This document shows positions 6,001 to 7,567 of a stretch of DNA of 64,000 bases, in pieces (position 1 is the first letter of the stretch; each line of letters begins with the position of its first letter). Position numbers and translations under genes: made by a program. Where the stretch lies: positions 1 to 64,000 of the forward strand of contig NZ_LWTX01000005.1 in assembly GCF_002094305.1 (NCBI RefSeq). The letters run 5' to 3'. Below the pieces are notes generated by a model. That model was given only the letters and a program-made list of their open reading frames with translations, did no database searches and was not told the origin of the DNA. Origin of the DNA: Prescottella equi (GTDB taxonomy: Bacteria > Actinomycetota > Actinomycetes > Mycobacteriales > Mycobacteriaceae).

Positions 6001-7189
6001 GCGCCTCACCCGACGCGAAGACGTTCCGCAGCGTCGCGACGTCCTCCGCGCTCGGCTGTGTCGGGTCCCCCGCCGCTCCGCTCGCCAGCGACGCCACGAA
6101 CACCGACAACATCGAGGGCACGAAGTGCGCGACGGTGACGCCGCGCTCGGCCATGATCCGCGCGAGGTACGCCGGATCCCGGTGCCCGTCGGGCGCCGCG
6201 ACCACCAGTCGTGCACCGACCTGCAACGGCCAGAAGAACTCCCACACCGACACATCGAACGTGAACGGCGTCTTCTGCAGCACGACGTCGGCGTCGGTCA
6301 TGGGGTACATGTACTGGCGCCAGCGCAGGTTGGCCACGATCGCCCCGTGCCCCACCGCGACGCCCTTGGGCCGGCCGGTGGAGCCGGACGTGAAGATGAC
6401 GTACGCGAGGTTCTCCGCCGACAGCGGCGCCGACCGGTCCGCATCGGTGACCGGCGTGTCCGAGTGGGCCTCCAGATCCAGGGCGTCGACCGCGACGATC
6501 GGGGTGTCGGTGTCCAGGGTCAGCTCGTCCCGAGTGGTCGTGAGAATCACGACGGGACGCGCGATGTCGAGGACGTAGCCGAGGCGGTCGGCGGGATGAT
6601 CGGGGTCGAGGGGCACGTACGCGCCGCCCGCCTTGACGATCGCGTACATGCCGACGAGCAGCTCGAGCGAGCGCCGGATTCCCAGACCCACCAGGCTGTC
6701 CGGTCCCACACCGAGTGAGATCAGGTGGCGCGCGAGACGATTGGCACGCGCGTCCAGGTCCGCGTACGTGAGGGTGGCGCCGGCGTACTCGAGCGCGACC
6801 GCGTCGGGGGTGCGGGCGACCTGCTCGTCGAACAGCGATGCGAGTGTTACGGCCGATCCGGCCGGCGCGGCGGTCGCCGAGTCGCCGAGCACCTCTACAG
6901 CGTCCGCGAACAGTGTGTTCAGCAGCCCGGGCAGTCCCCCGGTCTCGGGGGCCTCGAGCAACCCGGGCGCCACGGTCGACAGCACGACCGGGACGAGCGC
7001 ATCGATGCCGAGCACGCCGCCCATCGCGGCATCGAGGTTCTCGATCTCCTGCTTCAGCCGGGCGTACGTGACGGTGGTGTCGCCGACGGTCAACGCGATC
7101 CGGTCGGCATCGACCTCGACCACACCGGCGAGAAGCCTGGGCAGGTCCTCGATCGTCAACGCGTCGACTCCGGGCTGCTGGGCCGCCAT
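1..7189 (-). CDS. Non-ribosomal peptide synthetase, second subunit (3' end outside window)
   Basis: About 2,396 residues are visible, and the frame stays open to the left edge. Order seen: a 112-residue head unlike a C domain; A7 ([10 protein letters not shown] near residue 266); T7 (GGNSL near 666); C8 (HHISADG near 856); A8 (A3 motif near 1341); T8 (near 1715); C9 (HHIAADG near 1904); and the start of A9, cut just after its [10 protein letters not shown] core. Lining A7 up with GrsA by eye gives pocket residues D-V-W-H-F-S-L-V-D, the classic serine code. A8 reads D-A-L-F-V-G-A-V-A, the same as A3 of the upstream gene, with no residue assigned. The ATG at 7189 follows an AAGGAT ribosome site. 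The protein should accept the chain from the C-terminal C domain of the preceding subunit. Release domain and total length cannot be seen. Confidence 0.95.
2973..3178. repeat. 206-bp perfect direct repeat, copy in module 8
   Basis: This stretch matches 19542-19747 base for base by my reading. It lies inside the A8 domain and covers the A3 core through the start of the substrate pocket region. The first mismatches are at 2972 and 3179. Identity at third codon positions points to recent gene conversion or duplication rather than selection on protein alone. Confidence 0.9.
6853..7189 (-). other. N-terminal head of second NRPS subunit, related to tail of first
   Basis: Residues 1-112 precede the A7 domain. 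Residues 11-80 align without gaps to the last 96 residues of the upstream NRPS, with 26 of 70 identical by my count, including LT..DLP.L.AG near the start and PG.L.A at the end. Both resemble the first strands of an A domain (the 'LPELF...TPDAVAL...LTY.EL' region) but diverge afterwards. A role in docking the two subunits is inferred; it does not match the classic short COM-domain helix that I know. Confidence 0.6.
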
Positions 7190-7228
7190 GTACTTATCCT
7201 TCCCGACATCTGAAAACTTCGATCGCTC

Positions 7229-7264
7229 GATGCGGGGGAGCCGACGGATCGGCTCCCCCGCATC
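7229..7264 (-). terminator. Strong hairpin between the two NRPS genes
   Basis: A perfect 16-bp inverted repeat (GATGCGGGGGAGCCGA and its complement) encloses a 4-nt loop. It starts 12 nt past the stop of the first NRPS and ends about 40 nt before the ATG of the second. No U-run follows on the minus strand, as is common for actinobacterial terminators. It may be a partial terminator or attenuator, or may protect the 3' end of the upstream message. Confidence 0.6.
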
Positions 7265-7276
7265 ATCCGAGCGCGA

Positions 7277-7567
7277 TCACTCGTGTCCGCCCTCGATGAT
7301 CGCCGATGCGGCGACGATCATCTCGGCAACCGCCGACCGGTAGCCGTCCGGGCCCAGCGCCGGCAGGATGCCCGGCAGCAGCCCCGTCAGCGCAACGGTC
7401 ATCAGCGCCTCACCCTTCAGCGCCGCGCCCATCAGGGCGACGGTCGCTTCCAGTTTCGCGTGCAACTGCCCGAACGTGACGTCGGTGCCGTCGTGCGCGA
7501 CGGCCACCGTCTCCGGCGCGATCTGCGCGGCACCCGCGACCAGTTCGGGCAGGTCGTCGACCGTGAG
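7277..7567 (-). other. C-terminal tail of first NRPS subunit
   Basis: The last 96 residues ([12 protein letters not shown] to the end) follow the final C domain. They start like an A domain, then lose similarity and stop before any A3 core. They are homologous to the N-terminal head of the next subunit. The pair is best read as a matched subunit interface, or as the scar of a gene split inside an A-domain start. Confidence 0.6.

What the first reader, a model, noticed from the sequence alone, without database searches (positions are those of the whole stretch)
6853..7567. NRPS module split C//A-T with mutually homologous subunit ends
The first synthetase ends in a C domain followed by a 96-residue tail; the next begins with a 112-residue head, then the A domain. 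Tail and head align without gaps over 70 residues (26 identical by my count) and both resemble an A-domain start that decays before the A3 core. Known COM-type docking uses short, dissimilar donor and acceptor helices, usually between modules. Here the cut is inside a module and the two ends are related to each other. Either a duplicated A-domain start marks the break point of one ancestral gene, or two similar folds pair as an interface.
Basis: partly seen in the sequence, partly recalled or inferred. Interest (0 to 1): 0.72.

Follow-up and report, generated by a model that had tools for sequence, protein, structure and literature searches.

The report
Paired end-domains of split peptide synthetases
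A giant peptide-making enzyme is cut in two in the middle of one of its working units, and both cut ends carry related small domains that are kept together across many Rhodococcus relatives, which suggests a new kind of molecular handshake between enzyme subunits.

Summary
Tail (99 aa after the last C domain, win 7280-7576) and head (112 aa before the A domain, win 6854-7189) align without gaps over 70 residues with 26 identities (score 124; shuffle mean 34, best of 2000 = 74). Both belong to one ~95-residue family, here called X, related to the start of A domains but separate from them. Of 57 split-type loci read, 53 have a tail X ending one ORF and a head X starting the next; both genomes with a lone tail have a head elsewhere. 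In an overlapping named set 42 of 42 are paired. X also occurs inside unsplit ~11,300-aa synthetases between C and A, and as free-standing genes. A fission scar is unlikely: tails and heads form separate groups under purifying selection. Most likely X//X' docks and scaffolds the C/A junction. Direct tail-head contact is not shown: AlphaFold gave no confident arrangement (pTM 0.43, 0.46), and no tail-head co-evolution was seen beyond phylogeny. I found no description in an open-licence library.

The parts
7277..28081 (-). NRPS gene A (6934 aa): six C-A-T modules, then a C domain and the tail
   Evidence: ORF, translation, motif order
2..7189 (-). NRPS gene B (2396 aa held, cut by contig start): head, A-T, further modules
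   Evidence: the relative in G004 is a 3593-aa frame
7574..8929 (-). last C domain of gene A, whose A domain lies on gene B (approximate bounds)
   Evidence: C motif at aa 6511; Pfam Condensation ends 101 aa before the end
7280..7576 (-). tail X domain (C-terminal 99 aa of gene A)
6866..7168 (-). head X' domain (within the N-terminal 112 aa of gene B)
5329..6853 (-). A domain of the split module, first catalytic domain of gene B (approximate lower bound)
   Evidence: Pfam AMP-binding from aa 120; motifs
7190..7276 (-). 87-base gap between the genes; in frame here, but frames vary among relatives (20/14/18 over 52 pairs), so no read-through is implied
7230..7263 (-). conserved hairpin in the gap (G-rich 11-bp stem, 4-base loop, plus outer pairs)

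Best explanation
Tail and head are two members of one small domain family, X (~95 aa, helix-hairpin-helix-helix-long helix in the model), which is related to, and probably arose from, the beginning of an A domain and is used at the C-A junction of NRPS modules. In the split synthetase the tail X on the C domain and the head X' on the A-T half act together as the docking and scaffold element that brings the two halves of module 7 into one working C-A unit, most simply as an X:X' pair. Shown: family membership, position at the break, co-occurrence, separate and selected groups, cis copies in unsplit synthetases, confident predicted fold of each X. Inferred: that X and X' touch each other, and that they rebuild the C-A platform.
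For: 53 of 57 split-type loci read have tail and head side by side; the two genomes with a lone tail have the head 10.7 kb away (G040) or on another contig (G250), so pairing survives loss of adjacency. 42 of 42 named loci are paired. A second split type (L119, L120) has both ends, and both fall in a different X group. A third, divergent split type also has X at both ends (tails 28-41 bits, heads only 7-18 bits with the general X model). Purifying selection on both ends. The break leaves C without A on one chain and A-T without C on the other, so docking is required, and no known docking domain was matched at either end. X also sits at the same C-A position in cis. Each X is modelled with pLDDT block means mostly 79-96.
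Against: AlphaFold on tail plus natural linker plus head (20 rows) gave pTM 0.43, and C-tail//head-A (46 rows) pTM 0.46: no confident mutual placement. Tail-head tree distances correlate only 0.05 after removing C and A distances (50 pairs), whereas head-C gives 0.50, head-A 0.36 and tail-C 0.32. X exists where nothing needs docking, in cis in the giants. Two genomes have an extra head gene without an adjacent tail (G039, G222).
Confidence: 0.58

Rival explanations
1. X is a scaffold of the C-A junction that binds its own neighbour (tail X to C, head X' to A), or head X' binds the C domain directly as a COM acceptor binds its partner. Tail and head need not touch each other; doubling at a split gives each half its own cap.
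For: Single cis copies between C and A in unsplit giants. Head-C partial correlation 0.50, head-A 0.36 and tail-C 0.32 against tail-head 0.05. No confident X:X' contact. Literature parallel: cis-COM domains act as scaffolds between E and C (PMC12402864, abstract and passages).
Against: A mere cap does not explain why each of the 55 tails read has a head in its genome, even when the genes are apart. The partial correlations may only reflect that the long C domain tracks the species tree best.
Confidence: 0.22
2. X is an adaptor that recruits a partner in trans, for example the free-standing X proteins; at splits it has been re-used.
For: Free-standing X genes, two side by side, lie directly upstream of the giant in G022, G055, G085 and G028; 19 of 151 family genomes have two such frames 0.6-1.1 kb apart.
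Against: No free-standing X was found in the fetched surroundings of the giants of G010 and G012 or within ~10 kb upstream in G018, G194 and G086, nor in the window genome (0 matches at 1e-6, 29 of 144 candidates scored).
Confidence: 0.12
3. The two ends are a scar: a gene was broken and the start of the A domain duplicated at the break, with no function.
For: X is related to the A-domain start. In the window the two genes are in frame with a single TGA between.
Against: dN/dS about 0.3 for both ends; separate tail and head groups spanning genera; frames between the two are near random over 52 pairs (20/14/18); X occurs at uncut junctions and free-standing.
Confidence: 0.05

Closest known systems
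COM domains (communication-mediating; trans and cis)
   Same: Paired elements at subunit ends; cis versions exist inside continuous synthetases; scaffold role proposed (PMC9113145 section 11; PMC12402864 abstract and passages).
   Different: COM sits at E/C junctions and is a donor helix docking on an acceptor hand; trans-COM is thought to come from one cis-COM cut in two. Here the junction is C/A inside a module, and each end carries a whole homologous ~95-aa domain.
Intramodular ('split module') docking domains of trans-AT PKSs (four-helix bundle, DHD)
   Same: Dock subunits cut inside a module (PMC9113145 passages).
   Different: In polyketide synthases; the four-helix-bundle type has ~25-aa helical ends. 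No relation to A domains was mentioned in the passages.
PAX three-helix docking domains
   Same: NRPS subunit docking by end domains.
   Different: PCP/C junction; one helix against two; not homologous ends.
A-domain (ANL / AMP-binding) N-terminal region
   Same: Same helix-hairpin-helix start; most of the best structure matches are A-domain and acyl-CoA ligase N-terminal regions over ~70 residues, all weak.
   Different: X stops before core A3; the strand and helix that follow in A are replaced by two helices; no catalytic core.

Membership tests
COM docking domain | located at an E/C junction | tested here: not met
   The break lies between C and A inside module 7; E/C location of COM
COM docking domain | donor helix plus acceptor hand, unlike ends | tested here: not met
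   Both ends are complete homologous domains
PAX docking domain | three-helix bundle at a PCP/C junction | tested here: not met
   Junction is C/A; predicted X has a beta hairpin
beta-hairpin docking (TubC_N type; the name is recalled) | recognisable sequence profile | tested here: inconclusive
   No such Pfam match at E<=1 for tail or head; absence of a profile match does not exclude a fold, and the review's section on this class was not read
Adenylation domain | A-domain N-terminal start region | tested here: met
   Weak but consistent: the X model matches A starts of the window at 13-30 bits; AMP-binding E about 1e-5 for two cis X, though no AMP-binding match for tail or head themselves
Adenylation domain | A3 and later catalytic cores | tested here: not met
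   X ends before A3; 95-112 residues only
NRPS inter-subunit docking domain (general kind) | present as a cognate pair on the two subunit ends | tested here: met
   53 of 57 loci side by side; all 55 tails among them have a head in the genome; 42 of 42 named
NRPS inter-subunit docking domain (general kind) | physical binding of the two ends | tested here: inconclusive
   AlphaFold pTM 0.43 and 0.46, no confident arrangement; no coordinates were available to me for a contact check
NRPS inter-subunit docking domain (general kind) | needed for product formation | not testable with these tools
   needs experiment

The most novel reading that the evidence does not exclude
X is a dedicated pairing module that evolved from the first part of the adenylation domain and works as X:X' heterodimers: tail with head at C//A subunit breaks (in at least two separate X groups), the two cis copies of a giant synthetase with each other or with partners, and free-standing X genes as small separate partner subunits. 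This would be a new docking and scaffold system of NRPSs restricted to Rhodococcus, Nocardia and their relatives, able to convert one assembly line between one-chain and two-chain forms.
Probability: 0.3. Interest if true: 0.8.

Novelty: new variant of a known kind. Interest (0 to 1): 0.62.

Why it matters
The two NRPS-only docking classes in the review section I read sit at E/C and PCP/C junctions. A natural, conserved way of cutting a module between C and A, with its own matched ends, would give engineers a new place to split and recombine assembly lines, and would give the C-A platform an evolvable adaptor. One chromosomal locus that holds a split synthetase in most species of the genus and an unsplit one in two makes the question directly testable. 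The family also gives a first hint for small unassigned genes beside giant synthetases.

Tried and rejected
Read-through of the stop between the genes: the window is in frame with one TGA, but frames over 52 pairs are 20/14/18, so rejected (L013 with broken frames left out).

Tail-head co-evolution: partial correlation 0.05 over 50 pairs (3 side-by-side loci were left out beforehand: L013 with broken frames, L119 and L120 of the second split type), so no support.

Two-to-two rule (two cis X always matched by two free-standing X): holds in G028. G022 and G085 have the two beside the giant but also a third free-standing X frame elsewhere; G055 has two. It fails for G010 and G012 and for G018, G194 and G086, so rejected as a rule. 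The fetched stretch for G060 (L247) showed neither the giant nor X, so it tells nothing.

Free-standing X as detached tail plus head: scores do not separate clearly (five sX1: 30-43 bits with the tail model against 24-28 with the head model; five sX2 unclear), not concluded.

Glycopeptidolipid Mps1/Mps2 as the same case: raised from memory because frame lengths resembled it; named hits were Rhodococcus, Prescottella, Rhodococcoides, Antrihabitans and Nocardia only, so dropped without a direct test of Mps1/Mps2.

VIA-align top Z was only 5.2 and Foldseek's best E 0.54, so fold kinship rests mostly on sequence. Sequence search against solved structures gave only chance-level matches (best E 0.042).

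Alignment A3 (paired rows plus tail-only and head-only rows) put tails on heads, so it was not used for folding.

Literature: (open-licence PMC only; subscription journals mostly missing). I read section 11 and passages of PMC9113145 (not its section on beta-hairpin docking), the abstract and passages of PMC12402864, and passages of PMC5550956 and PMC10522769; the rest were seen as listings. None of what I saw described these ends.

Full report
What is there. On the minus strand two NRPS genes follow each other: gene A (28081..7277, 6934 aa) and gene B (7189..<2, cut by the start of contig 5). Gene A ends with a C domain that has no A domain on its own chain; gene B begins with an A domain that has no C domain before it. 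The cut therefore lies inside module 7. After the C domain come 99 residues (tail), before the A domain 112 (head). They align without gaps over 70 residues with 26 identities; the local score of 124 compares with 34.4 (sd 6.3, best 74) in 2000 shuffles.

What kind of sequence it is. A model built from tails, heads and internal relatives gives the window's tail and head 133-134 bits, but the ordinary A-domain starts of the same proteins only 13-30 bits, ending by model column 73 of 101 (these two X helped to build the model). Elsewhere one A start reaches 38 bits (L119) and the weakest X I kept has 42 (L132). In a tree of 154 rows the 21 A starts stand apart (SH-aLRT 100) from all 133 X rows. 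X is thus a family of its own, related to the first part of A domains. Pfam has no entry for it: tail and head have no meaningful match, while two cis copies touch AMP-binding over profile 3-54 at E about 1e-5, below the cut-off. Sequence matches to solved structures are at chance level. AlphaFold models each X well (block means mostly 79-96): helix, two-strand hairpin, helix, helix, long helix. Most of the nearest solved folds are the N-terminal regions of A domains and acyl-CoA ligases over ~70 residues; Foldseek probability reaches 0.87, but no E-value is below 0.5 and VIA Z is at most 5.2. The A-domain strand and helix that follow the second helix are replaced by two helices.

Is the pair conserved? 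In the genus, 10 of 14 genomes have the tail, two (G010, G012) have related internal segments only, and two (G011, G013) have no match at 1e-3. In the family 123 of 251 genomes and 16 of 31 genera have a match at 1e-4 (this includes internal copies, and a single weak match could be an A start). In 53 a tail X ends one ORF and a head X begins the next; 2 have only the tail there, and 2 only the head (in one of the 53, L013, the frames are broken). Both tail-only genomes have the head elsewhere: G040 10.7 kb away on the same contig and strand, G250 on another contig. Both head-only loci are extra genes in genomes that also have a side-by-side pair (G039, G222). In the named set, which overlaps, 42 of 42 loci have both (L172 again with broken frames); the organisms are Rhodococcus, Prescottella, Rhodococcoides, Antrihabitans and Nocardia. 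The nearest named relative of the window is Rhodococcus hoagii (tail 90% identical; near-identical records may be left out by the tool).

Tree. Of 54 tails 51 form one group (SH-aLRT 83), one (L093) is unplaced and two (L119, L120) lie elsewhere; of 54 heads 52 form one group (91), and L119 and L120 lie elsewhere. Both ends of L119 and L120 fall with the first internal type (95). This is a quick tree on 102 columns with many open forks (L013 was left out). A third, divergent split type appears in genera g9, g12 and g18: a 2.7-kaa frame ending in X and the next frame beginning with a weak X, seen as neighbouring matches in 9 genomes and read in G112, G183, G050 and G024. Class-wide (394 genomes) the listed matches outside the family look like A starts, apart from one unexamined weak match.

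Internal copies. In G010 and G012 a single frame of 11,806 or 11,306 aa has two X segments, each between the C and the A domain of one module, about 2,280 residues apart. Where a giant's genome was searched with the X profile, two X were found in the giant frame in G113, G022, G060, G086, G030 and G028; in G029 one is clear and others are weak. In G010 and G012 the A domains behind these X have an unusual A3 region. The giant and the split synthetase are alternatives at one chromosomal locus: 12 frames of the window's upstream flank (28878-55857) have collinear counterparts beside the giant of G012 and 11 beside that of G010, at 73-93% protein identity, and parts of the downstream flank of the split pair in G005 (52.0-55.9 kb of the stretch) match the downstream flank of the giant in G010 (its output was cut). 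The assembly lines themselves match only at 52-62% by best domain match. The C domain before the first internal X of the giant has its best match in the C domain before the window's tail (54%), though not the other way round.

Free-standing copies. A search with four small X proteins in 151 family genomes found two such frames (124-240 aa) 0.6-1.1 kb apart in 19 genomes, and single ones in others, two of them with a stop inside. In G022, G055, G085 and G028 the two lie directly upstream of the giant. They were not found in the fetched surroundings of the giants of G010 and G012 or in about 10 kb upstream in G018, G194 and G086.

How it may work. The split leaves both half-modules useless unless they meet, so some docking is required (established NRPS logic). 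X is the only extra element at the ends, is kept on both, and is under purifying selection (median dN/dS 0.28 for tails and 0.31 for heads, 36 within-genus comparisons each). The cis copies say that X has a role at the C-A junction even without a break. I therefore prefer a scaffold-plus-docking role, in the manner proposed for cis and trans COM domains at E/C junctions (PMC12402864, abstract and passages), with a whole domain on each side instead of a cut one. Whether tail X and head X' touch is open. Linked models gave pTM 0.43 (tail-linker-head, 20 rows) and 0.46 (C-tail//head-A, 46 rows), which means no confident arrangement, and tail-head distances were uncoupled once C and A distances were removed (0.05), with more coupling of head to C (0.50), head to A (0.36) and tail to C (0.32). 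These count against a tight, co-evolving X:X' pair and leave room for head X' meeting the C domain.

Against known kinds. The review section I read gives COM (E/C) and PAX (PCP/C) as the NRPS-only classes and names beta-hairpin docking as a third, treated in a section I did not read; passages place split-module docking in trans-AT PKSs. None of what I read has homologous, A-start-related ends at a C/A cut. Searches of the open-licence paper library found no description. I file it as a new variant of the docking/scaffold kind, function inferred.

Noticed in passing
window 7230-7263: A strong G-rich hairpin in the gap between the two NRPS genes; the inner stem is nearly unchanged in nine aligned genus loci while the loop varies (one pair with changes on both sides); no T-run follows, so perhaps a translation or mRNA-stability element.
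   Followed up: partly
window 28878-55857; L042-L045; L046-L048: The split synthetase and the unsplit giant (11.8 and 11.3 kaa) are alternatives at the same chromosomal locus within one genus (collinear flank with GntR regulator, acyl-CoA synthetase and acyl-CoA carboxylase genes).
   Followed up: yes
L241:3434-3925 and 4507-4965; L242:9555-9938 and 8656-9087; L248:3185-3604 and 4196-4642; L228:5356-5727 and 6222-6665: Two small free-standing X genes directly upstream of the giant NRPS.
   Followed up: partly
L226, L227 (G024): A synthetase pair of the divergent split type lies beside what look like ribosomal protein genes (rplC-, rplB-, rpsC-like by eye), with two free-standing X genes on the other side next to an ABC-transporter-like gene.
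   Followed up: no
L044, L043 (giant of G010): The A domains behind both internal X have an unusual A3 region ([12 protein letters not shown] / [12 protein letters not shown]) and match the normal A domains of the split synthetase less well (43-45%).
   Followed up: no
L121, L122 (G039, G222): Extra head-bearing NRPS gene (frames of 3246 and 3326 aa) with no tail gene beside it; it could use the tail of another locus.
   Followed up: partly
L013 (G003): Frames of both synthetase ends are broken into short pieces in this assembly (278 and 145 aa); sequencing error or decay not resolved.
   Followed up: no
G112 C30, G088 C1; L222: Very large NRPS frames (13,461 and 13,887 aa) with a head-like X next to a 2.7-kaa frame with a tail-like X; only the start in G112 was read.
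   Followed up: partly
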